From Acidimicrobiia bacterium (lineage in GTDB: Bacteria; Actinomycetota; Acidimicrobiia; Acidimicrobiales; Poriferisodalaceae), in NCBI GenBank assembly GCA_022821985.1, contig JAJECP010000021.1:62001-126000 (forward strand): a stretch of DNA of 64,000 nucleotides, written 5' to 3'. Made by a program: the position numbers and the translations under genes. Each line of letters opens with the position of its first letter. Positions within the stretch are counted from its first letter, which is position 1. Below are positions 18,851-35,964 of this stretch, piece by piece. The notes under the pieces were generated by a model. The model saw nothing but the letters and a program-made list of their open reading frames with translations, had not been told where the DNA came from and did no database searches.

Positions 18851-19510
18851 GTGATGATCAGCCAGGTGGGGCCGAGTCTTGTGGCCGGTGCGGTTGGCGG
18901 ACTGGGCGGCGTTGCCGCGGGCGCGGCGGCGGTTCGCTGCGCGAAGCGCTGCTTCGGTGTCCGCCTGCAGCCGGCATTGACAATCACGGCATGCATGGCG
19001 ACGGGCGCAGCGCTCGCGTTGCGGGTCGGTACCCACGCCTACCTAGCCCCGCTGCTCGTCTTCGGATGGGCCAGTGTGCTCATCGCAGCAGTCGACCTGC
19101 GCACCCACCTGATCCCCACGCGCCTATTGCGCGCCTGCACCGCCGTCGCAGTCCCGTTGGTGTGCGCAGCCGCGGCGCTCGACGGCGGCCTCGCAGGGCT
19201 GACGCGCGCATCTGCTGCCGCAGCCATCGGGGCGGCACTCGGCTGGGCCGCGATGCACGTCATCTGGCGATGTGCCCGGGGCGGGCTCGGCTATGGCGAC
19301 GTGCGGCTCGGCGGCTACCTGGGCCTGCACTTGGGCTTGGCGGGGTCAACAACCGTGCTCACTGGGCTTCTGGCAGGCTTCGCGATCGCGGCGCTGGTCG
19401 GCGCGATCGGCGTGGTGGTGCTGAACCGCAGCACCGACCACCGTTTCGCGCTCGGTCCCTCGCTGGTCATCGGCGCGCTCGCTGTCATCTGGTGGACAGT
19501 GCCTGTTTGA
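18851..19510 (+). CDS. Type IV prepilin peptidase (A24 family, short form)
   Basis: This membrane aspartyl peptidase cleaves the leader of type IV/Tad pilins. The 219-residue product is almost entirely hydrophobic, with about six to seven helices. It holds both catalytic Asp motifs: VDLRTHLIPTRLL, and GLGYGDVRLGGYLG with the GD pair. It lacks the cytoplasmic N-methylase domain, as in TadV/CpaA-type enzymes. It starts at GTG 18851 or ATG 18854. The only pilus locus in the window is about 5-15 kb downstream (24.2-34.7 kb), so it probably serves that system even though it sits among the aro genes. Confidence 0.85.
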   Translation: MMISQVGPSLVAGAVGGLGGVAAGAAAVRCAKRCFGVRLQPALTITACMATGAALALRVGTHAYLAPLLVFGWASVLIAAVDLRTHLIPTRLLRACTAVAVPLVCAAAALDGGLAGLTRASAAAAIGAALGWAAMHVIWRCARGGLGYGDVRLGGYLGLHLGLAGSTTVLTGLLAGFAIAALVGAIGVVVLNRSTDHRFALGPSLVIGALAVIWWTVPV

Positions 19511-22293: not shown

Positions 22294-22716
22294 ATGAGCC
22301 GCCCGAGCGATCCATTCGCAGCTCCCGACGAGCCGACTCGCCGCCGCGAAGCGCGTCAGCGCTCGGTGGAGCTGCTGTATGAGGCCGAGATGAAGTCGTG
22401 CGAGCTGGCCGATGTGCTTGCCGAGCAGGTCAGCGATGTCGACCCGTTCGCGCTCGAACTGGCCACCGGCGTCGCCGCCCAGCGCGAGGCGCTGACCCAG
22501 CGGCTCGCCGAGCTGCTCAACGTGGGCTGGACGCCCGAGCGTCTCGGTGCGTGCGACCGGCTGATCCTGCTGCAAGGCCTCTTCGAGCTTGAGCGAGAGG
22601 CGGCCCCAGCGGCGGTGGTGATCAACGAAGCCGTCGAGCTGGCACACCGGCTGGGCGCCACCGATCGCAGCGGCGCCCTGGTGAACGGCGTTTTGGCGGC
22701 CGCCGGCGGCCGGTGA
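22294..22716 (+). CDS. nusB: Transcription antitermination factor NusB
   Basis: NusB binds boxA RNA with NusE and supports rRNA antitermination. The 140-residue all-helical protein starts with RREARQRSVELLYEAEM and ends with AAPAAVVINEAVELAHRLG and GALVNGVLA, the family signatures. It follows efp by 38 nt, the same order as in other Actinobacteria, and probably shares its transcript. Confidence 0.94.
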   Translation: MSRPSDPFAAPDEPTRRREARQRSVELLYEAEMKSCELADVLAEQVSDVDPFALELATGVAAQREALTQRLAELLNVGWTPERLGACDRLILLQGLFELEREAAPAAVVINEAVELAHRLGATDRSGALVNGVLAAAGGR

Positions 22717-22770: not shown

Positions 22771-24006
22771 GTGAGCGCAGATGGCGATCTGCAGCCGCGA
22801 CGGATCGCCGAGCGCGAGCTCGTCTTCCTGCTGGGCGCCATCAGCGCCACCACCGCGCTGGGCATCGACATGGCGCTGCCCGCCTTCGGCGATATCCGGC
22901 TGGGCTTGGGCCTGGCCGCCGACTCGCCCCGGGTCGCGCTCACCGTCACGCTGTACTTCTTCGGCCTGGCCGGCGCGCAGATGTTCTATGGGCCCTTCAC
23001 CGATCGCTTCGGCCGCAAGCCGGTGCTCTACGCCGGCCTGGCGCTGTACACCCTCGGCGCTCTGGGGTCGGCGCTGGCGCCGTCGTTCGGCGTCCTGATT
23101 GCCAGTCGGCTGGTCTGGGGCATCGGCGCTGCAGGGCCCCGCGCCCTGTCGCTGGCCATCGGCCGCGACCTGTACGAGGGCGACCGGCTGGGCCGCGTGC
23201 TGTCAGCAGTCATGGCGGTGTTCATGGTGGTGCCCGCCATTGCGCCGCTCGGGGGCCAGGCAGTGCTGGCCCTCGGTTCGTGGCGCTGGGTGATGGCCGC
23301 CCCGATGGCGCTGACCGTGGTGCTGGCGCTCTGGATCATCCGGCTCCCCGAATCGCTCCCGCCCGAGCGTCGCCGCCCCCTCACGCTCGGTCGCACCCGC
23401 GAGGCCATCGTGGCGGTGTGCACCAACAAGCTCACCATCGGCTCGGCACTGGCCGTCATGTTCGACATGGGCTCGTTCTTCTCGTTCCTGGGGAGCAGCC
23501 AGCTCTTGTTCGACGACGTGTACGGACGGGGCGGGGTGTTCGCCTACTACTTCGCCGCGATGAGCGTGTTCATGGGGCTGGTGGTCTTCACCGGCAGCCG
23601 CCTGGTGACACAGATCGGCGCCGATCGGATGATCGTGACGCTGATGCCGATCGCCGTGGCGCTGTCGTGCGCGCTCGCGCTGTGGTCGTGGCAGGCCGGC
23701 GGCCGGCCGTGGTTCTTCGGCTGGTTCGCCGTGATCGTGGTGATCAATGCCCTGCGCACCTTCGTCAATCCGCTGATCCAGGCTCAGGCCATGGGACCCA
23801 TGGGCGAGCTGGCAGGCACTGCTTCGGCGGTGATCGGCACGATCTCGATGGGCGGCGGCGCAGTGCTCGCCATGCTCATCGACCGCATGATCGCCGGCTC
23901 GGTGACCCCGCTGGTCACCGCATACGCCGGCTACGGAGCGATCAGCCTGGCCTTCGCCCTGTGGGCCCGACGGCACCGGCTGTCTTCGTTCGCCGCCGGC
24001 GCCTGA
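22771..24006 (+). CDS. MFS drug-efflux transporter, Bcr/CflA type
   Basis: This is a 12-helix major facilitator of 411 residues that probably exports small molecules by proton antiport. The helix 2-3 loop reads GPFTDRFGRKPVLYAG, the MFS motif A, and an Arg-containing motif B region follows (LVWGIGAAGPRAL). The acidic TM1 segment (ALGIDMALPAFG) is typical of the Bcr/CflA drug:H+ antiporter-1 group. The GTG start is 54 nt after nusB. The substrate cannot be read from the sequence. It ends about 230 bp before the pilus locus. Confidence 0.85.
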   Translation: MSADGDLQPRRIAERELVFLLGAISATTALGIDMALPAFGDIRLGLGLAADSPRVALTVTLYFFGLAGAQMFYGPFTDRFGRKPVLYAGLALYTLGALGSALAPSFGVLIASRLVWGIGAAGPRALSLAIGRDLYEGDRLGRVLSAVMAVFMVVPAIAPLGGQAVLALGSWRWVMAAPMALTVVLALWIIRLPESLPPERRRPLTLGRTREAIVAVCTNKLTIGSALAVMFDMGSFFSFLGSSQLLFDDVYGRGGVFAYYFAAMSVFMGLVVFTGSRLVTQIGADRMIVTLMPIAVALSCALALWSWQAGGRPWFFGWFAVIVVINALRTFVNPLIQAQAMGPMGELAGTASAVIGTISMGGGAVLAMLIDRMIAGSVTPLVTAYAGYGAISLAFALWARRHRLSSFAAGA

Positions 24007-24236: not shown

Positions 24237-26234
24237 ATGGCCATTCGAAGGCGCAGCCTGACCGCATTGGGACTGCTGGTGGTCGTCGTCGGGACGCTCG
24301 TGGCAGCGTGCAGCGGCGACGGCGGAGAACCAGTCGATCCTGCCCCGTCGATCTCGGCAGACACCGGCGACGACGCCAGCGGCGTCAACACTGAGCAGCG
24401 CCCGGCGCTGGGCAATCGACCCGCTGGCGAGGCCCGGCTGATCGTTGCGGGCAACGGCGAGTACCCGATCTCGGGGGAACATCTCCCGTCGCTCGAACTG
24501 CAATCGGCCGTAGCGATCGGCGGCGGCCGCGTTTGGGTTCCTTGGCCCCCGTATCCAGAGCCGAATCTCGACCCGGTACGGCACAGCCAATCGGCAGCGG
24601 TGGGCTCGCACTCGAAACTGCTCGACGATGTCGGGCGGGGTCACGACTTCGTCGTCAGTCAACGGGCGCAGTGGGAAGCGATTCCGCCCTACCTGCCGGA
24701 AGCCCGGAGGGCGTTTGCCGAAGGGACTCGGGTGGCACGCCGACGCGGAGGTACCCAGACGGCGTGGGAGTTGGCGATCGATCCGGCGGGATTCGACTAC
24801 GAAACCCGCATCCATGCGGATCGCAGCGTCGCCTACGACCACGTATCGCTGTGCCCGCCGCATCCCACAACTGCCTCGCTCGGCGCGGTCCCCGGCGCTG
24901 CAGATGCCGAGCAGGAACGGGCCGGTGCGGCCATCGAAGCGTTCATCACCGGGATGCGCTCCCCCGGGGGTCGGCCGATGCACTCGTGGGGTACGACTGT
25001 CAACGAGGTCGCCAAGCTGCTCGTCTACAGCCCTGGGGAGCCGATGGAGCTTGCTCTCGGCGGCCACAGCCTGACTGACGCGGGATTCTTCCCCGGCGAC
25101 TGGTCGGCGCCGGCGATGCGCTGGCTCACTCGGCGAGCCGCCCAAGGCGCCGTCACGGACACGATCATCGGGCACGCCGCGGTCAGCAGCGGCCCCGCAA
25201 CCCTCTGGGAGGCCTGCAGCGATCTGGCCACGATCATCCCGGGCGTCTACACCGAGTCGCACCGCACACGCCAGCTGGAGTCGTTGTGGGCTCGTGGGCT
25301 ACGGCTCGAGTTCACAACGCCGCCCGTCGAACGGGCCTGGGTGGCAGACCTCAGTGCAGCAGGCCATGCGTTGGCGGTTGTCTGCCATGCGCCGGGGAAG
25401 TCTTTCCTCGTCGATGCCTCGACCGGCGAGCGCATCGATGCTGGCACTCATCATCGGGCGCAGGTCGAGGCCATGTGGCTCACGTGGTCGCGGCTCAGCT
25501 ACCGGGTGCTGCGCAATGCACTGTTCGAGGGTGGCTGCGAGAGCGAGGCGTTCGCCCGTGCAACGCAATGGCTGCACGATGAGAAGGTCGCTCACGCCGC
25601 GACCATCGACTGGAGAGAACCCCACGCTTGGGGTTCGGGCGTGCGCAACCAGTGGATCTCCGTGCGTGCGTGGGTGGCGGTGCCACAGCAGGAGGTGTGG
25701 CAGGCACACCGGGATCACGGGTGGCACCTGGGCTTCTGGTGCGAAACCGGCATCCCGGTCGGCCCACTGGTCGACGGCGATCTGCAGCGACCCGTGCTGG
25801 CGTCTCACTGCGCTCCCGAACAGTGGTCGGCGCTGGCCGAGACCGCGGCAGCCGCTCCCGAAGTAACAAGCGAGCTTTCGGCCACTCACTGGGAACCGGA
25901 CGCGAGCTGGCACGAGCGCATGTACCTCTCGCCGTTCAAATCGCTCGAACAAGTACTCGGCTGTCCTGCGGATGCCGACCTCATCGACGAAGCACTCGCG
26001 CGGCCGGTCGAACGACGGGCAAAGAAACCGTGGCCGCCGGGCTCGCTCCCGCTCACCCCTGACGGGCATGCCTATCCCCGCCCGATGCCGCCGTGCCCCG
26101 AGGCCAACTGGCCGCCGCAGACCGACCAGTTCTGGTGGCCCGAGACCGAATCGCTGGCCGAGCAGTCGGCTGCGTCTTGGGCAGGCGCGCGCGTGGACGC
26201 TCCCGCCGAGAGCACTGCCGGGGCCACGTCATGA
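24237..26234 (+). CDS. Putative lipoprotein of the Tad locus, unknown function
   Basis: This 665-residue protein has a lipoprotein signal: basic MAIRRRS, a hydrophobic core, and the lipobox LVAAC with Cys at residue 25. The mature part starts with an acidic linker and contains no domain I recognise. It is rich in Trp and His (for example HDFVVSQRAQWEAIPPY and QEVWQAHRDHGWHLGFWC) and has several Cys. It ends with a Pro-rich tail. ATG 24237 follows AGGAGCTGAGCG. Its stop overlaps the next gene (ATGA), so it is part of the pilus operon and may be a cell-surface assembly or anchoring component. Confidence 0.75.
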   Translation: MAIRRRSLTALGLLVVVVGTLVAACSGDGGEPVDPAPSISADTGDDASGVNTEQRPALGNRPAGEARLIVAGNGEYPISGEHLPSLELQSAVAIGGGRVWVPWPPYPEPNLDPVRHSQSAAVGSHSKLLDDVGRGHDFVVSQRAQWEAIPPYLPEARRAFAEGTRVARRRGGTQTAWELAIDPAGFDYETRIHADRSVAYDHVSLCPPHPTTASLGAVPGAADAEQERAGAAIEAFITGMRSPGGRPMHSWGTTVNEVAKLLVYSPGEPMELALGGHSLTDAGFFPGDWSAPAMRWLTRRAAQGAVTDTIIGHAAVSSGPATLWEACSDLATIIPGVYTESHRTRQLESLWARGLRLEFTTPPVERAWVADLSAAGHALAVVCHAPGKSFLVDASTGERIDAGTHHRAQVEAMWLTWSRLSYRVLRNALFEGGCESEAFARATQWLHDEKVAHAATIDWREPHAWGSGVRNQWISVRAWVAVPQQEVWQAHRDHGWHLGFWCETGIPVGPLVDGDLQRPVLASHCAPEQWSALAETAAAAPEVTSELSATHWEPDASWHERMYLSPFKSLEQVLGCPADADLIDEALARPVERRAKKPWPPGSLPLTPDGHAYPRPMPPCPEANWPPQTDQFWWPETESLAEQSAASWAGARVDAPAESTAGATS

Positions 26235-28723
26235 GCAGCAGCAAGGCCACAGCCGCTCCCGGAACCTCGGCGGCAGTCGCAACCGGATGCGCTCGCACCG
26301 GACTCGCACGCGCAACATTGCGGTGGATCGCAGGCGCGTTCGTGGTGATGACAGCGCTCGTCGTCACCGGTGCGCCGGAGGACCCGGCTCACGCGCAGAC
26401 ATCGGTGGCACCCGTGCTGAGTTGTGGCGGCGGCATGGCGCTCGACAGCGCCAGCGGGACGTGCCTGACAGTGCACACCGAGACTGCGCTGCGCCCCTCG
26501 TCGTGCCCGCCGGGCGCCACCAAGGTCAGCGGCCAACACGGTGGCCACGAGTGCCAGACCAAGGTGACCAAAACCGTGGACACCGGACGGACACAGCAGG
26601 TGTACAGCCACACGACGTACGCAAACGTGTGGGTGCCGACCGGAACCGAGACGGTCCAGACCGGCACGAATCGCATCTGGGTGCCGCCCAAGTCCGTGGT
26701 CGAGCCGCTGGTGCCTCCGGTGCAGGTGCAGGTGGGCACTCGCACCGAGACGACGGAGGTGACCCGTCCCGGTCCCGATGTGCTGTACGAGGTCACTTAC
26801 GAGGTAGAGGTGCAGACGCAGCATGTGGTGGAGCGATGCTCGTTCGATCCATTCGCGGGTCAGCAGTGCTGGAACGAGACGGTCACCGAGACACACACGG
26901 AGACGCGCACACGCATGGAGTGCTGCATTCCGGGCCCGCCGGTCACCGAGACCGTCACCACCGAAGTTCCCGTCTACGAGTGGCAGACCACGACCACGGT
27001 GACCATTCCCGGCTACTGGCGAGAGGACCCCGTCTACGAGACACGCGAGACCGGCTACTGGGACCGTGTGCCCACGATCCACTACACCACGGTCCGCATC
27101 TACGACACGGTGGTCGAGTGGTTGACATCGCCGGCAACGCTCGGCCCGTGCGCCGCTGGCTGGCAAACCGTCGGGAGCCAGTGCCAGCGCACTTACCTCG
27201 GGCAGCCGTCCGCGCCAGCGCAGCAGAGCTGTCCGACCGGGTCGGCGCCCCGCTACGGCGATGCACTCGGCGGCACCGGCCCGTCGGTGTTGACATGCCA
27301 GTCGATCGCGCCCGGCTCAGACACCGACACCGGCACCGACCAGGAGGACAGCGGCGGCGGCGAGGACAGTCTCGACGGGACCGCGCGGCCGCTGCATCAC
27401 TTGGCCGGCGAGAGCGATGAACGGCTTGCCGAGCTGGGCATCCATCGCTGTGCGGGCGGCCTGCTGTCGTACGTGCCATGCGACAAGCTGCCCGGCCGCA
27501 CCTGGGACAGCGACCCCGATGTCTGCGATGACATTGAGGGAACGACGTACCGCCCTGATCACGGCGGCACCTGTGTCACCGGCAGCGATCTGCTCAGCAA
27601 GTGCACGACGCCGGGCGATTGCGAGGAGACCACCATTCGTACCTACTGCCCAGCGATCGGAGAGCTGGCGGGCACACAGATCCAGGAGCACGCCCACCCA
27701 GATCGGGGTGCAGAGACCTATCGGGTGTGCATCTTCGACTGCTCGAGCTTCGGCACCTTGCCGCCGTACGTGCAAACGCGCATCAACGGCTCGTACGACT
27801 ACGCCTGCCGGCCCGTCGACGACGAGTCCGACGATGACGACGACGAGGAGAAGGAAGAGGACGAGGAGAACGAAGACGACGAGGAAGACGAGGAGGACGA
27901 CGAGGACGACGAAGAAGAAGAAGAGGAAGAGGACGATGACGAGACCGAGGAAGATGACGAGGAGACCGAGGAAGGTGAAGAGGGCGACGATGACGATGAC
28001 GGAGGCAGCGGCGGCGGCCCCGGAGGTCCGCCCGGTACCTCCGCTCCGCCCACGACGACCACTGCAGCACCCGACCCGCAGTGCCCGGCACTTCCGCCAC
28101 TGCCGCTGAGCGCAGCCGATGACGCTGCGCTGGCGTGGGAATCGCACGTCCGCTCGGCGAGCGTGGCCACGTCAGGTCAGGCGGACATGCCTGGCGGCGG
28201 ACGGTTCGTACAGGTGGCGCCCGGACGCGGCTGGATGCGCGCGCATCGCACCCTGCAGATCAGTGATGCGAACTGTGTGTGGACCGCTGCGAAACTGCGC
28301 ACCGCTTGGTCCGAGCTGCGGCCGTGGATCGCCGCCGAGCGACGGTTGATCGAGGCCGAGCCCGGCGCCAAGCACCTGGTTGACCGCTGGGATGCGCTGA
28401 GTGCCGACCAGCAGCAACTCCTGCGCCAATGGCACCGACCCGGCGCCGCGCCCGCAGAGGTCACCTGCGCGGTCGCCGACGCCACCGGGGCCACGGCATC
28501 GTCGCTCTGCGGCTGGCTGCTTGGGCACCCTGCCGCATACGCGTGGCGCTTCGATGTGTGCTTCGAAGTCGCTCCGATGCCGGGGCAGGCCGGCTCCAAC
28601 GGGGGCCAGCCACCAGCTGGCGACTGCTGGGCGACGCTCGCCTCAGGCGTGGACTGGATCCGACCGGTGAGCGACTACGCGGACGATCGGGTGACCGTCA
28701 CGCAGAGCGGAGCGCGGACGTGA
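26231..28723 (+). CDS. Large secreted Thr/Cys-rich protein with a 61-residue acidic tract
   Basis: This 830-residue exported protein lies in the pilus operon. Residues 1 to about 56 form a signal peptide (AGAFVVMTALVVTG, with AHA-Q as probable cleavage). About 60-330 is Thr/Val/Tyr-rich with irregular beta-type repeats (TETVTTEVPVYEWQTTTTVT; IPGYWREDPVYETRETGYWD) and Cys pairs. About 360-528 is a Cys-rich region. Residues 530-590 are Asp/Glu (54 of 61 residues). A Gly/Pro/Thr linker and a helical C-terminal domain (about 630-830) with paired Cys follow. It may be a tip adhesin or calcium-binding surface protein. No known family was recognised. The ATG overlaps the preceding stop. Confidence 0.75.
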   Translation: MSSSKATAAPGTSAAVATGCARTGLARATLRWIAGAFVVMTALVVTGAPEDPAHAQTSVAPVLSCGGGMALDSASGTCLTVHTETALRPSSCPPGATKVSGQHGGHECQTKVTKTVDTGRTQQVYSHTTYANVWVPTGTETVQTGTNRIWVPPKSVVEPLVPPVQVQVGTRTETTEVTRPGPDVLYEVTYEVEVQTQHVVERCSFDPFAGQQCWNETVTETHTETRTRMECCIPGPPVTETVTTEVPVYEWQTTTTVTIPGYWREDPVYETRETGYWDRVPTIHYTTVRIYDTVVEWLTSPATLGPCAAGWQTVGSQCQRTYLGQPSAPAQQSCPTGSAPRYGDALGGTGPSVLTCQSIAPGSDTDTGTDQEDSGGGEDSLDGTARPLHHLAGESDERLAELGIHRCAGGLLSYVPCDKLPGRTWDSDPDVCDDIEGTTYRPDHGGTCVTGSDLLSKCTTPGDCEETTIRTYCPAIGELAGTQIQEHAHPDRGAETYRVCIFDCSSFGTLPPYVQTRINGSYDYACRPVDDESDDDDDEEKEEDEENEDDEEDEEDDEDDEEEEEEEDDDETEEDDEETEEGEEGDDDDDGGSGGGPGGPPGTSAPPTTTTAAPDPQCPALPPLPLSAADDAALAWESHVRSASVATSGQADMPGGGRFVQVAPGRGWMRAHRTLQISDANCVWTAAKLRTAWSELRPWIAAERRLIEAEPGAKHLVDRWDALSADQQQLLRQWHRPGAAPAEVTCAVADATGATASSLCGWLLGHPAAYAWRFDVCFEVAPMPGQAGSNGGQPPAGDCWATLASGVDWIRPVSDYADDRVTVTQSGART
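27818..28000 (+). other. Acidic tract coding region (Asp/Glu run)
   Basis: This 183-bp purine-rich stretch encodes 29 Glu and 25 Asp among 61 residues. Both codons of each amino acid are used, so it does not look like a recent single-triplet expansion. Confidence 0.9.
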
Positions 28724-29424
28724 CGATGTCGTCCAGACCCGCCATCGGACCCGACGACCAGGCACTGGCCTCGCCCGGCGCGACACGCCCCGGCATCGAG
28801 CCGTGGCGGGTCGGCGTCTCGGCAGTGATCGTCACCGTTGTCGTAGCGGCGATCTGGCTGTGGGGCCGCCCGCACCAGGCGCCGCCGCACGCGCTGGTGG
28901 CGGTGACCTCGGAGGCGTGGCTCGCAGGCCAGCCGCCAGGTGCGTTCGAGGTCGCAGGAGTTCCTCAGGATCTCGCCGGCCGGTTCGCCGATCCTGACTC
29001 GATCGCGGGCAGCGTCGTGGGCTTCGACATCCCCGCGGGGACCTTCGTCACGCCGACCGTGCTGGGTCCGCCTGACGCCGCTGCCGGTGCGCGTACCGCT
29101 CTGCGCCTGAGCGCGGACACTTCCGCGTGGCCCGAGCCCGGTCCTCGTGCTGGCAGCCGGGCTGTCGTGTCAGGCGTGCTGGGCGGCTGCGCGCTTGACG
29201 TGACGACGTTGGCGGGCGGCGCGGACGGCAGCATCGTGGTGCACGTCGACGCGGAAAGCGCTGCGCGCTATGCGAGTGCCGCAGAGCTCGACGGACTGGT
29301 CGTATGGCCGGCGCCGCCCGACGGCTGGCCCGAGTGCCGGTCACCGGTGGCCGTGCGCACGGTCTCCTCGGCGTTCGGCACCGGGGCGACGTCGATGCCG
29401 TTCGATGATCCGGCGGGAGGCTGA
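28720..29424 (+). CDS. CpaB/RcpC-like pilus assembly protein (SAF domain)
   Basis: The 234-residue protein has one N-terminal membrane helix (about 31-48), then a SAF-like region (HALVAVTSEAWLAGQPPGAFEV; DSIAGSVVGFDIPAGTFVTP). A C-terminal region may be a beta domain. CpaB-type proteins with SAF domains are standard parts of Tad pilus loci, where they work at the cell envelope. The GTG start overlaps the previous stop; ATG 28726 is the alternative. It sits directly before tadA. Confidence 0.7.
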   Translation: MTMSSRPAIGPDDQALASPGATRPGIEPWRVGVSAVIVTVVVAAIWLWGRPHQAPPHALVAVTSEAWLAGQPPGAFEVAGVPQDLAGRFADPDSIAGSVVGFDIPAGTFVTPTVLGPPDAAAGARTALRLSADTSAWPEPGPRAGSRAVVSGVLGGCALDVTTLAGGADGSIVVHVDAESAARYASAAELDGLVVWPAPPDGWPECRSPVAVRTVSSAFGTGATSMPFDDPAGG

Positions 29425-29427
29425 GCA

Positions 29428-31434
29428 GTGCTGCTTGTGCTGTGCGACGACGCTGTGGACCCAGCGACGCGCGATTGGGTCCGCGATGCGCTGCAGGCAG
29501 GACTGTCCGCCGTTGCGGGTCAGGTCCGGCTCGCCGCCGACGTGGTGTCGATGCCGCGCCCGGACGACGGGGGCGAGCCGTGCGTGGTGTGGCTGACCAG
29601 CGAGGTCGAGCCCGATGCCATCGCGGCTGCGACGGCCGCCTCCAGCGAGGTGCTGCTGCTGCTCGGCGTGACTGCCGCCCGTGCCGCAATCCGTCCAGCC
29701 GGTGGCCCTCGCGCCACACATGCGTGGCACGCGGCGGCCGCGAGCGGGGTGCCGCGCATCGCAGTGTGGCTGCCGGCCGCCGACGGCGGGCGCGGTGATC
29801 CCACCGGCGAGTTGTCCGCCGCGCTGGATGCGAGCCGGGTGGTGCGCATCAAGCGGGTCGGCGTCCGCAGCGCATACCGGCAGCTCTACCGGCTGGGGCG
29901 CTCGTTGGCGTCGTCGGCATGCGCCCCGCAGCGACTCGACCGAACCGACGGCGCGGTGCGACGACGCACCGCCGCTCGCGCCGCCACGGATGCGCTCTCA
30001 GAGTTGCTCGATGAACCCGGCATCGAGGAGTTCCAGATTCGCGGCGGTGAGTCGATGCTGGTGCAGTACGCGGACGGCCGGGTGGAGCGACGGCCGTCGC
30101 CGTTCGCAGCGGACAGCGATCTCATCGAGGCGGTGCGCTTTCTGGCGAGCTATTCCGGCGATCGACCTCAGCGCTTCGATGAGCTGGATCCTCGGCTGGA
30201 TGTGCGCGTCGGCGACCGCTGGCGCCTGCATGCCGAGGCGTTCGTGACGAGCCCGCCCAACGTCGTGCTCCGCTCGAACATGGCGGGCCGCATGCGTCTC
30301 GACGACCTGGGCATCGCCTCGAACGAGCTCGGCAGCGTGCTCATCGAGGCCGTCGCGGGCAGGGTGCGGGCCAACGTGGTGGTGGCGGCGACGATGGGCG
30401 GCGGCAAGACCACGCTGTGTCAGGCATTGCTCGCGGCGGTGCCCGACCACGAGCGCATCGACACCATCGAGGACACGCCCGAATTGCGGCTGGCGGAGTA
30501 CGGCATCCATCCCAACACCTACGAGCGGCTGACACGCGATGCCAATCAGGACGGCCACGGCCGCCACTCGATGGCCGACCACATCCGCGATGCCAAGCGA
30601 GCGAACGCCGCCAAGCTGGTGGTGGGGGAGATCCGCGGCGAGGGCTGCGAGGCGCTGCTGGATGCCATGTCCTCGGGCCTGGACGGCTGCCTGGTGACGC
30701 TGCACTCGCAGCCGGGCACGGGCGTGCTGGAGAAGCTCGTGGCCTATGCCTGCTCTGAAGGTGCAGAACCTGATTACGCACGTCGCCAGATCGCCGCCGC
30801 AGTCGACCTGTGTGTCTGGATGGGCCGCAATGACGCTGGTGAGCGGGTCATCGCTGACGTTACGCAGCTCACCGGCATCGACGATGTCACTGGGGTCATC
30901 GCGACGACCTGCCTGTGGGCGCTGCGACCGGGCGACCGGTGGGCGACCCCGGCCGGACGCCCCGCGGGTCGTATGGCAGAGGTGTATGCGTCTGCCGGTC
31001 TCCCCGCAGCAGGCGGCGACGCCGAGCTGCCCTCGGCGTACTCGCAGATCGTCGATGTGCCAGCGTCGCCGCCCGATGCAGGCGCCAGAGCGGCGGCCGC
31101 CGAGCCGCCGATCCTCGCGCAGCCGCAGCCGCAGCCGCAGCCGGCGGCGATCCTCGCGCAGCCGCAGCCGGCGCCGGAACTACACCCGGCAGAGAACCAG
31201 CCTCCAGCCGCCGAACCGCTCGCGGCGTCGCGTCCCCAAGCAGGGGAATCTCCACCGAGCGACGAGCCACTGGATCTGCCAGTCGAGCCACTGCCGCCGG
31301 CAGGATCGCGTCCGGGTCCGCCCGCGCATGACGACGGGCTGTCGCGGGGAGTGCTGTGGGATCCCGGTCCGCTCATCCCGATTGACGACCCGCCGCCGTA
31401 TGAACCGCTCGTTGCCGAGGACACCGCGTGCTGA
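29428..31434 (+). CDS. tadA: TadA/CpaF-type pilus assembly ATPase with extended ends
   Basis: This hexameric secretion ATPase powers Tad pilus polymerisation. The ATPase core spans about 190-500: Walker A is ATMGGGKTTL with Lys 327 (the first Gly of the consensus is Ala), an acidic box lies at IDTIEDTPELRL, Walker B is VVGEIRGEGCEALLDAM, and a His box is at LVTLHSQ. It is long for the family at 668 residues. An N-terminal extension of about 185 residues (starting MLLVLCDDAVDP) may be a TadZ/receiver-like domain. A tail of about 130 residues is Pro/Gln/Ala-rich. The GTG follows GGGAGG at ideal spacing. The last codons overlap tadB. Confidence 0.9.
   Translation: MLLVLCDDAVDPATRDWVRDALQAGLSAVAGQVRLAADVVSMPRPDDGGEPCVVWLTSEVEPDAIAAATAASSEVLLLLGVTAARAAIRPAGGPRATHAWHAAAASGVPRIAVWLPAADGGRGDPTGELSAALDASRVVRIKRVGVRSAYRQLYRLGRSLASSACAPQRLDRTDGAVRRRTAARAATDALSELLDEPGIEEFQIRGGESMLVQYADGRVERRPSPFAADSDLIEAVRFLASYSGDRPQRFDELDPRLDVRVGDRWRLHAEAFVTSPPNVVLRSNMAGRMRLDDLGIASNELGSVLIEAVAGRVRANVVVAATMGGGKTTLCQALLAAVPDHERIDTIEDTPELRLAEYGIHPNTYERLTRDANQDGHGRHSMADHIRDAKRANAAKLVVGEIRGEGCEALLDAMSSGLDGCLVTLHSQPGTGVLEKLVAYACSEGAEPDYARRQIAAAVDLCVWMGRNDAGERVIADVTQLTGIDDVTGVIATTCLWALRPGDRWATPAGRPAGRMAEVYASAGLPAAGGDAELPSAYSQIVDVPASPPDAGARAAAAEPPILAQPQPQPQPAAILAQPQPAPELHPAENQPPAAEPLAASRPQAGESPPSDEPLDLPVEPLPPAGSRPGPPAHDDGLSRGVLWDPGPLIPIDDPPPYEPLVAEDTAC
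31111..31170 (+). repeat. 39-bp-spaced repeat in the tadA tail
   Basis: The sequence ATCCTCGCGCAGCCGCAGCC occurs at 31111 and again at 31150, with CAGCCG triplet pairs between. It encodes ILAQPQP repeats in the Pro-rich C-terminal tail of TadA. Confidence 0.75.
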
Positions 31435-32201
31435 AGCTCGGGGCGCTCGGCGCAGTGGGCTGCGCGGCTGCGCTGTGGCCGCTGTTCAACACCGGTCTTC
31501 GGCCCCGATCGCGCGGCGAGGAGTCGCCCCGCTGGCCGTTGCTCGTGACCGGCGCCGTCGCACTTGTTGCTGGGCTGGCGTTCGGGCCGGCGGCGGCCGG
31601 TCTGGCAGGCGCGGTGGTCGGCATCGGCACGTGGTGCGCTGCGTGCATTGCCCGCAGCCGTCAACGCGTCCATGCCGCAGAGTCGGTGGCCCAGTTCGCG
31701 GCGATCCTGGCCAATCAGGCTCAGGTCTCGCGCACAGTGGTGGACGCGCTCGAGACCGCAGCACCGCTGGCCACCGGACCCATCGCCCAGACAGCGGCCA
31801 AGCTTGTCGATGAGTGCCGCAACGTCGGTGTCGAGGCAGCGGCACAGCAGTTCGCGGCTGGATCCGACGGCCCGATTGCCGCGTGGCTGGCTGATGTCGT
31901 AGCGGTCGCCGCAGCCAGCGGTGGTCAATGGGCACCGATCCTGGGGGTGCTGGAGGGCGAGGCCGCCGAGGCCGCCTCCACTGCACGGCACTTTCACCGG
32001 CATGTCGCCGCCAACTTGCCCCAGCTGGGGCTCGCAGCCGCCCTCGGGGCCGCCGTCGCCCTCGGCAGCGCGCTGGTCAGCCCCGATGCGTGGGAGTGGC
32101 TGTCGGGAACGCAGGGACAGCGTGTCGGCTTGGCCGCGACCGTGGTCGCGGTGGCCATCAGCGTCCGGCCCCTGAGTGCCGCCTGGGAGGTGCTCCGGTG
32201 A
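31428..32201 (+). CDS. tadB: TadB-like pilus inner-membrane platform protein
   Basis: This 257-residue protein has two N-terminal membrane helices, a soluble helical GspF-like domain (VAQFAAILANQAQVSRTVVDALE, then QFAAGSDGPIAAWLADVV) and two C-terminal helices. This is the TadB layout, although slightly short. The GTG start overlaps the tadA end by 7 nt. It probably forms the platform with TadC for the TadA motor. Confidence 0.8.
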   Translation: MLKLGALGAVGCAAALWPLFNTGLRPRSRGEESPRWPLLVTGAVALVAGLAFGPAAAGLAGAVVGIGTWCAACIARSRQRVHAAESVAQFAAILANQAQVSRTVVDALETAAPLATGPIAQTAAKLVDECRNVGVEAAAQQFAAGSDGPIAAWLADVVAVAAASGGQWAPILGVLEGEAAEAASTARHFHRHVAANLPQLGLAAALGAAVALGSALVSPDAWEWLSGTQGQRVGLAATVVAVAISVRPLSAAWEVLR

Positions 32202-32251
32202 GGGTGCCGTCAGGTCGCCGGAAGCAATGGCTCGGGGAAACGCTCCCATGA
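32198..32251 (+). CDS. Mini-ORF 1 between tadB and tadC (17 codons)
   Basis: The GTG overlaps the tadB stop (GTGA) and the frame ends at a TGA that itself overlaps the next mini-ORF (ATGA). The peptide would be MRVPSGRRKQWLGETLP. It may serve only to relay translating ribosomes. It could be chance. Confidence 0.3.
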   Translation: MRVPSGRRKQWLGETLP

Positions 32252-32301
32252 GCGGGCCGTCGCCTCGCTCGGCGCCGTCGGCACCGGAGTTGCTTCGATG
32301 A
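32248..32301 (+). CDS. Mini-ORF 2 between tadB and tadC (17 codons)
   Basis: The ATG overlaps the stop of mini-ORF 1, and the TGA overlaps the tadC start (ATGA). The peptide would be MSGPSPRSAPSAPELLR. The three starts (32198, 32248, 32298) are exactly 50 nt apart, and the first 14 bases of the two mini-ORFs match at 11 positions, so local duplication is possible. Confidence 0.3.
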   Translation: MSGPSPRSAPSAPELLR

Positions 32302-33065
32302 GTGTTCCCTGGTTGCCGTTGGGCGTGCTCGGCATGTGGCTCATGGCCGGCGCCGGCGCGTGTGCGGCTGTCGGGCTGCTCGCGTCGAGCGAGCGTCGTC
32401 GCCGGAACCGCCGCCGGCTGACGGCGTTGGGTTGGAGCCCGTCCCGGCTCGCGAGCCTCACGTCGATCGTGGCGGTGTGCACCATCGGCATCGGATTCGT
32501 GGCGGCTGGCCGGATGGCGGCGGGCGGGGGCGCCTCGCCGGAGACGTCCCTGGCATGGTCGCTGCTGGCCGCGGTCGTGGCGGCGTGGGCGGTGCCGGGT
32601 CTCATGGCCAGTGCCGTGCTGGCAGGTCACCGGCGCCGTGCCGACGGCGCTGTGCTGCTGTGGCTTCGCCGCATTCGCCTGTTCGTTGCGGCGGGGCATC
32701 CGATCAGCGTGGCGGTGCTCGACGCGGCTGAGCGCGTCAGCGACCCGGCATTCGCACCCGCCGCTGGCGCCGTCAACGCAGCCGTGCTCGGCGGGCGCGA
32801 TCCGCTGGCTGCCGTGGCGGCGCAGCTCGGCGATTCGCCGACGGCGTCGCTGCTGCGCACCGTGGATGCAGCCGAGCGCTCGGGCGCTGCGGCCTCCGAG
32901 TTGCTCGACCGCGTCCTGGACCGTGTGGTGCGAGCCATGGACGACCGCCGCCGCGAATCCATCGACCGCCTCGCCCGCTCAGTAGGCGCATCCGCCTCGC
33001 TGCTCGCCGTCGTGGCCTCGGCCGTCGTCATGGCGACCGTCGTCATGACGCTGCCCTCGGTGTGA
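32298..33065 (+). CDS. tadC: TadC-like pilus inner-membrane platform protein
   Basis: This 255-residue protein has N-terminal helices (about 7-27, 50-70, 78-98), a GspF-like domain with ADGAVLLWLRRIRLFVAAGH and PISVAVLDAAERVSD, then AERSGAAASELLDRVLDRV and a C-terminal helix. The size and order fit TadC as the partner of TadB. The next small gene follows with an overlapping stop. Confidence 0.78.
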   Translation: MSVPWLPLGVLGMWLMAGAGACAAVGLLASSERRRRNRRRLTALGWSPSRLASLTSIVAVCTIGIGFVAAGRMAAGGGASPETSLAWSLLAAVVAAWAVPGLMASAVLAGHRRRADGAVLLWLRRIRLFVAAGHPISVAVLDAAERVSDPAFAPAAGAVNAAVLGGRDPLAAVAAQLGDSPTASLLRTVDAAERSGAAASELLDRVLDRVVRAMDDRRRESIDRLARSVGASASLLAVVASAVVMATVVMTLPSV

Positions 33066-33139
33066 GCGCGGCACCGTATGCCGATCTCGACGACCCCGAC
33101 GAACCCAAGCGCCCGCGGGAGCGGGCAAGGAGCAAACAC

Positions 33140-33346
33140 ATGGATTCACCAGTCACCAAGCTGATCTTCATCGCCGCCGCCGTCGCCGCCTCGATTCTCG
33201 TGGTGACGGTGATGTGGACAACCCTCGGCAACAACGCGCCGCAAGCTCACGACAGCACCGTCGACTTCAGCAAGATCACGACCAAGAACCTGTGCGATGC
33301 CGTCAACGGCAACTGGAGCTCCAACGCATGCGTGGCGAAGTCATAA
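33140..33346 (+). CDS. Small pilin-like protein (candidate Flp pilin)
   Basis: This 68-residue product starts at an ATG with an excellent AAGGAG site 8 nt upstream; an in-frame GTG at 33062 overlaps tadC but lacks such a site. It has a short polar N-terminus (MDSPVTK), a hydrophobic helix (about 8-27) and a polar tail with two Cys (CDAVNGNWSSNAC). The usual Flp processing motif (G/A before an E-Y pair) is not seen. The strong ribosome site and the position after tadC suggest an abundant structural subunit. The assignment is inference. Confidence 0.55.
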   Translation: MDSPVTKLIFIAAAVAASILVVTVMWTTLGNNAPQAHDSTVDFSKITTKNLCDAVNGNWSSNACVAKS

Positions 33347-33482
33347 CGGCGTACTTGCACGCCATGACTCCACAAGTGCGATCCGAGAGGCGAAAGCTCG
33401 TGGGTGATGCGGTGCATGTGCGTGCGTGGTCGGCAAGCCTCGCACGCCTCTAGTCCGATCGACATGCATGCGGTGAGGCCAC

Positions 33483-33899
33483 GTGGACAGCTCGCTTTCG
33501 ATCCTGCGCTTGTTCAGCGTGCTGGTGGTGTTCATGGCACTGGTGATCTCGATGTTCAGCAGCCAGGTCGGCGCTGCGGCGGCGCAGGGCGCGGCCGACG
33601 CCGCGGCCATCGCAGTCATCGACCTGGTGCCGCCCGATTGGGACTGCACTGCGGCAGACCTGCCGGTCGACGCGACCATCACGGCGGCTCGAGTCGCGGT
33701 GGACCGAGCGGCGCAGCTCGCCGCCGTCCAGCCCATCGCCGTCGAGGTGCAGGCCGACCCGACGTGCTCGGTCATTGTGTCGGTGCGAGTCTCGCCTCGC
33801 GGTTGGCTCAGCCACGGCGAGGCGCTCGGTGTGGCCTGTCGCCGTCCGCCATCTGGCGAGGGCCCAGCGCTGTGGGCGCCGGTGGCACCGCCGTGCTGA
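33483..33899 (+). CDS. TadE/TadG-like minor pilus protein (first of three)
   Basis: This 138-residue protein has an N-terminal helix (about 9-31), followed by the Ala-rich segment AAAAQGAADAAAIAVIDLV that is typical of TadE/Rv3654c-type proteins. A short extracytoplasmic domain with Cys residues follows. The start is GTG 33483. It is one of three similar small single-helix proteins in a row. The family call rests on layout and position more than on sequence identity. Confidence 0.6.
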   Translation: MDSSLSILRLFSVLVVFMALVISMFSSQVGAAAAQGAADAAAIAVIDLVPPDWDCTAADLPVDATITAARVAVDRAAQLAAVQPIAVEVQADPTCSVIVSVRVSPRGWLSHGEALGVACRRPPSGEGPALWAPVAPPC

Positions 33900-33932
33900 A
33901 TCCAGCGTCGTTCGCTGGGAAGAGGTGTGGTC

Positions 33933-34349
33933 ATGGATGAAGCCGTCGGCATGCTCAGCGCAGCAGCGGTGCTGGTGTTCGGCATCTGGCTGGTGGATTA
34001 CTCCGGCGACGCCACCCGTGCGTCAGGATCGATCCGGGCGGCGAGCGTCGAAGCGGCGCACTACGCGGCCAGTGCGCTCGCATCCCCACCAGCCACCGCC
34101 ACAAGTGCCGACGTCGATCGGCACGCCGCAGGCATCGCCGAGCGTGTCGTCGGCGCTGCGGCCATCGCCGACTGTGACACCGCCGATCGGCGCTTCAGCG
34201 TCACCGCGGCTGTCCACCGCCTTCCCGCTCAAACTGATCCTGCTGCTGTGACGGTCGACGTGACCTGTCCGCTCGCAGTTTCGCCGTTCTTCACCGACGT
34301 GGTTGGTGCCCGTATCGCCATGCCAATCTCGCCGACACCCGGGCTCTAG
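33933..34349 (+). CDS. TadE-like minor pilus protein (second)
   Basis: The 138-residue product has a helix at about 7-23 (MLSAAAVLVFGIWLVDY), then an Ala/Ser-rich helical stretch (ATRASGSIRAASVEAAHYAA) and a soluble part with two Cys. GGAAGAGG lies 7 nt before ATG 33933, which therefore beats the in-frame GTG at 33927. The arrangement resembles TadE pseudopilin-like proteins that help pilus assembly. Confidence 0.6.
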   Translation: MDEAVGMLSAAAVLVFGIWLVDYSGDATRASGSIRAASVEAAHYAASALASPPATATSADVDRHAAGIAERVVGAAAIADCDTADRRFSVTAAVHRLPAQTDPAAVTVDVTCPLAVSPFFTDVVGARIAMPISPTPGL

Positions 34350-34351
34350 TC

Positions 34352-34741
34352 GTGAGTACACCCTTCATCGCGCTCGCACTTGCAGCGATGTCTGCGCTGT
34401 TCAGCGCCGCCGCTGCCGACACAGCGCAGGTCATGAGTCTGCGGAATCAGGCTGCCGACGAGGCCCGCCGGATCGCGATCAGCACGCTCGATTTGTGCGC
34501 CGTGAGCAACGAACCCAGCCGCCGTTGTGTGCCGCCTCCGGGCTGCTCCGCTCCGGCCTGCGCGGTCTGCCGACGTGGCGATGCCGTCCAAGCTGACGTC
34601 TCGCTGGCCTGGTCGCCCGTGATGCTGCGGGGTCTCACCCCAGCCCACGGCCGTCACGCACTCAGCCTCCAAGCACTCGACGTCGCCGACCTGGCCGGAA
34701 CAGACCTGCCCGCCTGCGCCTCGTCACGTTCCACTCCGTGA
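34352..34741 (+). CDS. TadE-like minor pilus protein (third)
   Basis: The 129-residue protein begins 2 nt after the previous stop. The helix at about 4-23 is followed by a charged helix (SLRNQAADEARRIAIS) and a Cys-rich loop (CVPPPGCSAPACAVC). It has the same layout as the two genes before it. It probably ends the pilus operon. Confidence 0.55.
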   Translation: MSTPFIALALAAMSALFSAAAADTAQVMSLRNQAADEARRIAISTLDLCAVSNEPSRRCVPPPGCSAPACAVCRRGDAVQADVSLAWSPVMLRGLTPAHGRHALSLQALDVADLAGTDLPACASSRSTP

Positions 34742-34745
34742 GACC

Positions 34746-34967
34746 GTGATCCCGATCATCGCGGCGAGCGCCTTCAAGCACGGCATCTCCGAGGAGGACA
34801 TCATGCATGCGTATCGCAACCCGATCAGGGGGTACCTACAAGGCGACCGTGTGCTGCTGGTCGGCGGCGACTGGAGTGGGAACCTCTTGGAAATCGGTGT
34901 CGAGGCGGGCGAGGAGCACGACATCATCATCCATGCGATGCCGGCGCGGGATAGGTTTTTGCCATGA
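34746..34967 (+). CDS. Toxin-like small protein of a TA-type pair
   Basis: This 73-residue protein contains SAFKHGISEEDIMHAYRNPI, VGGDWSGNLLEIGVE and IIIHAMPARDRFLP. This matches short actinobacterial proteins that sit in front of a small helical partner and resemble BrnT/RelE-like toxins ('...HGV...D...A.R......IHAMP.R..F'). GTG 34746 is 4 nt after the last pilus gene. The stop overlaps the next gene by 4 nt (ATGA). Toxin activity is inferred from gene pairing and similarity and has not been shown. Confidence 0.55.
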   Translation: MIPIIAASAFKHGISEEDIMHAYRNPIRGYLQGDRVLLVGGDWSGNLLEIGVEAGEEHDIIIHAMPARDRFLP

Positions 34968-35242
34968 GCACCGCTCGTCGTCCAGTCGCCGAGATCCTCG
35001 CGGAGGCTAATGAGATCGCGGCTTGGTTCGAGAACCTCGATCCCTCCCAAGTAGAGCAGGGCGCTATTTCGGAGTACCTGCTCAGGCGCGCAGCGCGGGC
35101 CAGAGCGCAGTGCGAACGCGAAGTCGACAGCGCAGTCCGCAAGGCGCGGGCCGACGGTGCCACGTGGTGTCGGATCGGCGAGATTCTGGGCTTGGACGAG
35201 CAGGAGGCACGCGAGACGTACGGTCTCGTTGAAGCCCGTTAG
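34964..35242 (+). CDS. Antitoxin-like partner with helix-turn-helix-like end
   Basis: This 92-residue all-helical protein is translationally coupled to the previous gene. The C-terminal segment RKARADGATWCRIGEILGLDEQEAR looks like a helix-turn-helix of the type seen in the actinobacterial partners of these small toxins ('ARA.GATW..IG..LG.....A'). It would bind the operon promoter and the toxin. No catalytic motif is seen. Confidence 0.55.
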   Translation: MSTARRPVAEILAEANEIAAWFENLDPSQVEQGAISEYLLRRAARARAQCEREVDSAVRKARADGATWCRIGEILGLDEQEARETYGLVEAR

Positions 35243-35397: not shown

Positions 35398-35964
35398 GTG
35401 GCAGACCGCGAGCGACGCATGACGCCCCCGTATGGGGGCGTTTTCGTTGCCCGGACCACCATTCTCGATTCCAGCGGCGTCCACCGGGCACTCACCCGTG
35501 TCAGCCACGAGATCATCGAGCGGAACGAGGGTCTCGACAAAGTCCTCGTGGTGGGCCTGCAGACCGGCGGCGTGCAGATCGCCCTGCGGATCGTGCGCCT
35601 GCTGTTCGAGATCGACGGCACCGACGTGCCCTTCGGCACGCTCGACGTGGCGATGCACCGCGACGACATCGGCCTTCGCCCCGTCATGGCCGAAGCCGTC
35701 ACCGACATCCCCTTCGACCTCGACGGCATGACGGTGGTGCTGGTCGACGACGTGCTCTACACCGGCCGCACCATCCGTGCAGCGCTCGATGCCCTGAACG
35801 ACTTCGGGCGGCCCCGTGCGGTGCAGCTCGCCGTGGTGATCGACCGCGGTCACCGCGAGCTGCCCATCCGCCCCGACTTCGTCGGCAAGAACCTGCCCAC
35901 CAGCCGCGAGGAGATGGTGGACGTCACGCTCGAGGGCGTGTTGCTGGGGGAGATGCGCAAGTGA
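35398..35964 (+). CDS. pyrR: Pyrimidine operon regulator PyrR
   Basis: PyrR binds pyr mRNA when UMP is high and can also have uracil phosphoribosyltransferase activity. The 188-residue protein has the PRPP-binding motif VVLVDDVLYTGRTIRAAL. It also has VVGLQTGGVQIALRI and the family end PDFVGKNLPTSREEMVDV. GTG 35398 was chosen for its ideal AGGAAGGA site; ATG 35419 is also in frame. The usual N-terminus (ILDSSGVHRALTRVSHEI) is preceded by an extra 20-odd residues, because the intrinsic terminator is embedded in the first codons. The stop overlaps pyrB (GTGA). Confidence 0.93.
   Translation: MADRERRMTPPYGGVFVARTTILDSSGVHRALTRVSHEIIERNEGLDKVLVVGLQTGGVQIALRIVRLLFEIDGTDVPFGTLDVAMHRDDIGLRPVMAEAVTDIPFDLDGMTVVLVDDVLYTGRTIRAALDALNDFGRPRAVQLAVVIDRGHRELPIRPDFVGKNLPTSREEMVDVTLEGVLLGEMRK
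35422..35444 (+). terminator. Intrinsic terminator/attenuator inside the start of pyrR
   Basis: An 8-bp stem ACGCCCCC (35422-35429) pairs with GGGGGCGT (35434-35441) around a GTAT loop, followed by TTTT. It lies in codons 9-16 of pyrR, encoding TPPYGGVF. It should form only when ribosomes are absent. Confidence 0.75.

What the first reader, a model, noticed from the sequence alone, without database searches (positions are those of the whole stretch)
24237..34741. Tad-type pilus locus with two large unrecognised secreted components
TadA, TadB, TadC, a CpaB-like protein, a pilin-like protein and three TadE-like proteins lie in one direction with overlapping stops and starts. The operon opens with a 665-residue lipoprotein and an 830-residue Thr/Cys/acidic secreted protein that match no Tad component I know. 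No secretin is present, as expected for a single-membrane cell, and no separate TadZ was seen. These two proteins may define a distinct surface appendage.
Basis: partly seen in the sequence, partly recalled or inferred. Interest (0 to 1): 0.68.

Follow-up and report, generated by a model that had tools for sequence, protein, structure and literature searches.

The report
Divergent Tad pilus island with stalk protein
One genus of uncultured Acidimicrobiia carries, at a fixed chromosomal site, an unusual version of a known bacterial pilus (Tad) whose operon starts with two large surface proteins: a lipoprotein that seems to be an enlarged form of one found beside Tad pili across the order, and a disulfide-rich protein predicted to form a long thin stalk.

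Summary
The operon at 24237-34741 is real. It is syntenic in all 11 genomes of the genus and under purifying selection. With an MFS gene it forms a ~12.7 kb insertion between nusB and pyrR, which are adjacent in 14 of 14 readable loci from other genera of the family. P1 (665 aa) and P2 (830 aa) match no Pfam or NCBIfam family and were not found outside the genus.

They are not without precedent. Across Acidimicrobiales the Tad locus typically opens with a lipoprotein, a secreted protein and CpaB, so P1 and P2 occupy known slots. P1 residues ~316-438 resemble the order-wide Tad lipoprotein (hhalign score 31.8; best of 150 shuffles 23.6). P2 does not resemble the usual PKD-like secreted protein. 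Its N-terminal half is related to giant secreted proteins beside other Tad loci of this genus and is predicted, with moderate confidence, to be a long disulfide-capped beta-hairpin stalk.

The system is atypical: no TadZ, no leader peptides on the pilin-like proteins, prepilin peptidase 4.7 kb upstream. Most likely P1 is a membrane-anchored base component and P2 an extracellular stalk or adhesin displayed by the pilus; that function is inferred, not shown. Verdict: new variant of a known kind.

The parts
18851..19510 (+). Prepilin peptidase (Peptidase_A24), in the aroE/aroB region upstream; probable processing enzyme, shared
   Evidence: PF01478 2.2e-7, above cut-off
22771..24006 (+). MFS transporter, first gene of the genus-specific insertion after nusB; role in the pilus unlikely
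   Evidence: PF07690 5.5e-35; upstream of P1 in the genus loci
24237..26234 (+). P1, 665-aa lipoprotein with 8 invariant Cys in the mature part besides the lipobox Cys
   Evidence: lipobox L-x-A-A-C25; invariant Cys; no family; genus only
25182..25550 (+). P1 residues ~316-438: region resembling the order-wide Tad-associated lipoprotein domain
   Evidence: hhalign score 31.8, 150 column shuffles max 23.6
26231..28723 (+). P2, 830-aa secreted Cys-rich protein
   Evidence: signal peptide with AxA site; 25 Cys invariant in 11 orthologs; no family
26435..27202 (+). P2 residues 69-324: predicted very long antiparallel beta-strands (stalk) between two sets of Cys loops
   Evidence: AlphaFold2, residue-block pLDDT mostly 70-82; homologous to giant Tad-adjacent proteins
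26837..26869 (+). Hairpin tip C203-SFDPFAGQQ-C213; C-x-F-D-P-x-x-G invariant in all 11 orthologs
   Evidence: same motif after the signal peptide of other secreted proteins
27821..28030 (+). Acidic low-complexity linker of P2, Thr-rich in most orthologs
28720..29424 (+). CpaB/RcpC-like (SAF-type) membrane protein
   Evidence: hhalign vs order-wide CpaB: prob 94%, P 1.5e-7
29428..31434 (+). TadA ATPase with an extra N-terminal part and a Pro-rich tail ending in a conserved WDPGPLxPxxDPPPYExLV motif
   Evidence: PF00437 3.6e-16; TIGR03819 6.8e-40 below its cut-off
31428..32201 (+). TadB-like platform protein
   Evidence: position and hydrophobic segments; no family match
32298..33065 (+). TadC platform protein
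   Evidence: PF00482 1.3e-7
33062..33346 (+). Small bitopic pilin-like protein, candidate major subunit
   Evidence: conserved MDSPVTKLIFIAAAVAA core; no class III leader
33483..33899 (+). TadE/G-like protein E1
   Evidence: PF13400 0.0072, below cut-off; conserved in 11 genomes
33933..34349 (+). Pseudopilin-like protein E2
   Evidence: conserved start codon after a GGGAGG-type ribosome-binding site
34352..34741 (+). Pseudopilin-like protein E3
   Evidence: conserved in 11 genomes; N-terminal hydrophobic segment

Best explanation
This is a divergent, genus-specific Tad (type IVc) pilus locus of uncultured Acidimicrobiia. SHOWN BY SEQUENCE: a TadA ATPase, two platform-type proteins, a CpaB-like protein and four small bitopic pilin-like proteins, co-inherited with a large lipoprotein (P1) and a large secreted disulfide-rich protein (P2) at a fixed site in all 11 genomes of the genus. 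P1 occupies the slot of, and contains a region related to, the Tad lipoprotein found across the order. P2 occupies the slot of the secreted protein, but its N-terminal half belongs to a stalk family encoded beside other Tad loci of the same genus. INFERRED: TadA, TadB and TadC build a short filament or pseudopilus from the small proteins. P1, anchored to the outer face of the cytoplasmic membrane and held by CpaB, forms a collar that receives P2 at the base. P2 is exported by Sec and displayed on or beside the filament as a ~15 nm disulfide-capped beta-hairpin stalk that carries the tip motif through the cell wall to act in adhesion or recognition. Stalk length varies between species (with or without an extra pair of strands) while the tip is invariant.
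For: Synteny in 11/11 genomes and an insertion between nusB and pyrR absent from other genera. Purifying selection; P1 and P2 synonymous divergence tracks TadA/B/C (r 0.70-0.76) better than the flanking genes (r -0.31 to 0.54). Order-wide lipoprotein-secreted-CpaB module: 27 of the 30 best lipoprotein loci have the secreted gene alongside, 20 also CpaB. P1 domain match beyond every shuffle; CpaB match prob 94%. P2 N-terminus vs the giant Tad-adjacent family prob 95.7%, P 9.6e-9, score 67 vs 35 for the best block shuffle. Beta-stalk prediction. Invariant Cys, signal sequences.
Against: No physical or expression evidence. The AlphaFold model of P1 failed (mean pLDDT 33), and P2 is only moderately confident, in the stalk. 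The P1-lipoprotein hhalign probability is only 18-44% because the alignment is shallow; the case rests on the shuffle control. There is no canonical Flp pilin or leader peptide, so a filament is not assured. P2 has no pilin helix or wall anchor, so its attachment is unexplained.
Confidence: 0.5

Rival explanations
1. The Tad-like machine is a pseudopilus secretion device. It makes no surface filament; the small pilin-like proteins form a short piston that pushes Sec-exported P2 out through the cell wall, with P1 as the docking lipoprotein.
For: No Flp-type major pilin and no class III leaders; P2 is large, disulfide-rich and has an ordinary signal peptide; four small bitopic proteins of similar size.
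Against: A monoderm exports through Sec without such a device; several order-wide relatives of the locus do encode canonical G|xxxxE pilins.
Confidence: 0.2
2. P1 and P2 are general surface proteins that merely share the transcript with the pilus genes, for example an envelope lipoprotein and an adhesin with no structural role in the pilus.
For: No interaction data; P1 and P2 evolve faster than TadA and the platform proteins (pN/pS 0.37 and 0.40 vs 0.23-0.26).
Against: Same lipoprotein + secreted + CpaB arrangement in many families of the order; P1 domain and P2 stalk both have relatives beside other Tad loci; never found without this TadA in the genomes sampled.
Confidence: 0.2
3. The P1-to-lipoprotein relationship is spurious: P1 is an unrelated, genus-born protein that replaced the usual lipoprotein at the same position.
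For: hhalign probability only 18% for full P1 and 44% for the selected segment; shallow alignment (Neff 1.3-1.6).
Against: Score about 7 standard deviations above column shuffles and twice the reversed control; the match is colinear over the whole domain, and both proteins are lipoproteins in the same slot.
Confidence: 0.25

Closest known systems
Tad / Flp / type IVc pilus (T4cP), as reviewed in PMC10191384 and, for monoderms, PMC6916266
   Same: TadA ATPase, TadB/TadC single-domain platform pair, CpaB/RcpC-like protein, small bitopic TadE-like proteins, no secretin in a monoderm, a prepilin peptidase encoded elsewhere
   Different: No canonical Flp major pilin or class III leader, no TadZ, TadA with extra N- and C-terminal parts, two large non-pilin secreted proteins at the head of the operon
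Acidimicrobiales Tad loci with lipoprotein - PKD-like secreted protein - CpaB - TadZ - TadA (loci L133-L138, L142-L172 here; no published name found)
   Same: Identical order of lipoprotein, secreted protein, CpaB and TadA; P1 region 316-438 related to the lipoprotein; CpaB homologous
   Different: P1 is three times larger; P2 is unrelated to the PKD-like protein; TadZ missing; the remaining genes too divergent for simple profile matches
Giant Cys-rich secreted proteins beside other Tad loci of the same genus (L090, L132)
   Same: Cys loops, Thr/Val-rich zigzag stalk, Cys-capped tip, acidic linker in L090; encoded next to CpaB, with a lipoprotein nearby in L090
   Different: Divergently transcribed, longer, with PPC-type C-terminal domains instead of the P2 C-terminus
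Kil pilus tip complexes of Myxococcus (PMC12075869)
   Same: Tad pilus functionalised by large variable extracellular parts
   Different: Kil tips are minor pilins with alpha1N helices; P2 is a signal-peptidase-I-type secreted protein, not a pilin

Membership tests
Tad / type IVc pilus | TadA-type secretion ATPase | tested here: met
   PF00437 3.6e-16, TIGR03819 6.8e-40 though below its cut-off
[quoted passage not shown]
   TadC meets PF00482 (1.3e-7); TadB has no match but the right position and hydrophobic segments
Tad / type IVc pilus | Flp major pilin with class III leader (G|xxxxE) | tested here: not met
   No leader in the small protein or E1-E3; the apparent G before E2 is a ribosome-binding site
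Tad / type IVc pilus | TadE/TadF/TadG minor pilins | tested here: inconclusive
   E1 PF13400 E=0.0072, below cut-off; E2 and E3 no match
Tad / type IVc pilus | Prepilin peptidase in the genome | tested here: met
   PF01478 at window 18851-19510 and at C19
Tad / type IVc pilus | CpaB/RcpC | tested here: met
   Profile-profile prob 94%, P 1.5e-7; SAF domain only sub-threshold in 2 orthologs
Tad / type IVc pilus | TadZ | tested here: not met
   No TadZ gene in the operon; TadA N-terminus vs TadZ profile P=0.19
Tad / type IVc pilus | Secretin absent in monoderms | tested here: met
   No PF00263 in the held genome (about 90% complete)
Tad / type IVc pilus | Assembly of a filament | not testable with these tools
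   needs microscopy
Acidimicrobiales Tad lipoprotein | Lipoprotein at the head of the lipoprotein-secreted-CpaB module, with the conserved domain | tested here: met
   Slot and lipobox met; domain score 31.8 vs shuffle max 23.6, but low hhalign probability
Acidimicrobiales PKD-like Tad secreted protein | Sequence similarity to the order-wide secreted protein | tested here: not met
   P2 vs deep profile P=0.12
Giant Tad-adjacent stalk proteins of the genus | Homologous Cys-loop/zigzag N-terminal region | tested here: met
   prob 95.7%, P 9.6e-9; reversed and block-shuffled controls far lower

The most novel reading that the evidence does not exclude
The Tad machine of this genus displays a non-pilin appendage: a lipoprotein-based collar (P1) carrying a ~15 nm disulfide-capped beta-hairpin stalk (P2). 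Its tip motif (C-x-[FY]-D-P-x-x-G) is a shared recognition hairpin also placed at the mature N-terminus of other secreted proteins, so that pilus and secreted partners use the same docking element, and several Tad loci of the genome carry their own stalk protein.
Probability: 0.2. Interest if true: 0.72.

Novelty: new variant of a known kind. Interest (0 to 1): 0.5.

Why it matters
The two monoderm Tad systems covered by the review PMC6916266 (Bifidobacterium breve, Micrococcus luteus) are minimal machines without large accessory surface proteins, and how such pili adhere is poorly understood. If P1 and P2 are structural, the order-wide lipoprotein + secreted protein pair is an overlooked part of these Tad systems and gives testable candidates for the base and the adhesive end. 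The loss of TadZ and of leader peptides would also show how far a Tad machine can diverge.

Tried and rejected
1) P1 is wholly orphan: dropped after the order-wide lipoprotein was found. 2) P2 is a version of the PKD-like secreted protein: rejected. 3) The TadA N-terminus is a fused TadZ: looked plausible by eye, rejected by hhalign (P=0.19). 4) P2 is a pore-forming toxin because Foldseek lists aerolysin-type pores: rejected, TM-scores 0.03-0.07 and rmsd mostly over 50 A, only the long hairpins match. 5) P1 occurs in another family (G297): the 9.8 kb contig is 99.5% identical to the G004 locus, so most likely a misbinned contig. 6) Weak P1 hits in G090 and G256: confined to the signal-peptide/linker region at about 20-25 bits, ignored. 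7) E2 has a canonical leader G|VVMDE: rejected, the Gly codons are the ribosome-binding site. 8) P1 internal repeats: none. 9) P1 AlphaFold model: unusable. 10) PDB sequence search with P1 and CpaB profiles: nothing credible. 11) No paper on Tad pili of Acidimicrobiia was found in the held library, and the host or habitat of these bins could not be documented.

Full report
What is there. The window is G000:C18:62001-126000 of a 3.3 Mb genome in 41 contigs; close relatives are metagenome bins named Acidimicrobiia / Acidimicrobiales. At 24237-34741 ten genes run in one direction: P1 (lipoprotein, 665 aa), P2 (secreted, 830 aa), a CpaB-like protein, TadA, TadB-like, TadC, a 94-aa bitopic protein and three further small bitopic proteins E1-E3. 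TadA and TadC have Pfam matches (PF00437, PF00482); TadB, CpaB-like, the small proteins, P1 and P2 have none above cut-off.

More than chance. All ten genes are present in the same order in all eleven genomes of the genus, with the same MFS transporter upstream and pyrB downstream wherever the assembly allows. Synonymous change exceeds non-synonymous change in every gene (pN/pS 0.23-0.50; P1 0.37, P2 0.40). P1 and P2 synonymous divergence follows TadA, TadB and TadC (r 0.70-0.76) more closely than the flanking genes (r -0.31 to 0.54).

A genus-specific insertion. In 14 of 16 listed loci from other genera of the family nusB lies directly upstream of pyrB with only room for pyrR between them; the other two are cut by contig ends. 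In the window nusB ends at 22716 and pyrR starts at 35398. A block of about 12.7 kb, MFS plus the Tad operon plus two small genes, therefore looks gained at one site and kept throughout the genus. P1 and P2 were not found outside the genus among 99 relatives by pairwise search apart from one 25-bit fragment, nor P1 in 397 order genomes by profile. One apparent exception is a 9.8 kb contig 99.5% identical to a genus member over its whole length, most likely misbinned.

The two slots are known ones. In other Acidimicrobiales families the Tad locus opens with a ~200-aa lipoprotein, a ~280-aa secreted PKD-like protein and CpaB, followed by TadZ and TadA. A search with the lipoprotein profile gave 30 best loci from different genomes; 27 carry the secreted gene and 20 CpaB within the 1.5 kb fetched on each side. 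P1-P2-CpaB-TadA is the same arrangement without TadZ. The window's CpaB-like protein is related to the order-wide CpaB (hhalign prob 94%, P 1.5e-7).

P1. All 11 orthologs keep the lipobox Cys25 and eight further Cys. Residues ~316-438 align colinearly with the order-wide lipoprotein. The hhalign probability is low (18% for full P1, 44% for the selected segment) because the eleven sequences are close relatives. The score, 31.8, is far above 150 column-shuffled controls (mean 14.1, sd 2.5, max 23.6) and the reversed control (14.6). I read P1 as an enlarged member or descendant of that lipoprotein family. Its structure could not be predicted (mean pLDDT 33).

P2. It has a signal peptide ending in AxA and 26-29 Cys per ortholog, 25 of them invariant. 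Residues 69-324 are predicted as strands of 40-53 residues with block pLDDT mostly 70-82, that is, long beta-hairpins of roughly 15 nm, flanked by short Cys loops. Five orthologs lack about 60 residues of it, but the tip C-x-F-D-P-x-x-G is invariant, and the acidic linker is Thr-rich in most orthologs. P2 is unrelated to the PKD-like protein. Its N-terminal half is related to giant Cys-rich proteins encoded beside other Tad loci of the genus (prob 95.7%, P 9.6e-9; score 67 vs 35 for the best block shuffle and 28 reversed). One of these, in L090, also has an acidic linker and a lipoprotein gene next to it. Foldseek matches to pore-forming toxins are meaningless (TM 0.03-0.07).

How divergent the Tad machine is. 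TadA is about 29-38% identical to other TadAs over the ATPase part, and profiles of TadB, TadC, CpaB and the small proteins did not hit the other Tad loci examined. TadZ is absent, and the extra N-terminal part of TadA is not a recognisable TadZ. None of the four small proteins has a class III leader; the Gly codons before E2 are the ribosome-binding site, whereas several relatives of the locus do encode G|xxxxE pilins. A prepilin peptidase lies at 18851-19510. No secretin was found in the held genome.

Mechanism. Shown: co-inheritance, slot, domain relationship of P1, stalk-family relationship of P2, extracytoplasmic location by sequence. Inferred: P1 as a membrane-anchored base component held by CpaB; P2 displayed as a stalk by the Tad machine for adhesion or recognition. 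The nearest functional parallel is the Kil pilus, whose Tad filament is capped by large variable tips (PMC12075869), but those are pilins and P2 is not. A secretion-type pseudopilus and a purely co-transcribed pair remain possible.

Verdict. A real, conserved, divergent Tad variant. New variant of a known kind; interest 0.5.

Noticed in passing
window 26837-26869 (P2 tip); L097, L098, L121-L126: A disulfide-hairpin motif C-x-[YF]-D-P-F-A-G-x-Q-C-W-N-E occurs in other secreted proteins of the genus, just after the signal peptide in the two read in full; five further copies in G000, 1-7 per genome in 10 of 11 genus genomes, none in 88 other genomes. Function unknown.
   Followed up: partly
L090:1068-4427, L091:10931-16000, L132:13281-16541: Several other Tad loci of the genus have a giant (1000 to over 1600 aa) Cys-rich secreted protein divergently transcribed from CpaB; L090 also has a 288-aa lipoprotein next to it.
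   Followed up: partly
G000 C1, C5, C16, C31 and the window (C18): The genome carries six T2SSE-type ATPase loci, a large set of Tad/type IV systems for 3.3 Mb.
   Followed up: no
window 34746-35242: Two small overlapping genes after E3, reminiscent of a toxin-antitoxin pair but with no Pfam match, present in only part of the genus genomes.
   Followed up: no
window 29428-31434: The C-terminus of TadA ends, after a variable Pro-rich stretch, in a conserved motif WDPGPLxPxxDPPPYExLV not expected in TadA; possible partner-binding site.
   Followed up: no
window 24237-34741 across L080-L089: Nearest relatives differ between P1, P2, TadA and flanking genes (e.g. closest to G009 for MFS, to G007 for P1), suggesting allele exchange within the genus.
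   Followed up: partly
L139 (G297:C445): A 9.8 kb contig binned in a genome of another family is 99.5% identical to the G004 locus: probable misbinning.
   Followed up: yes
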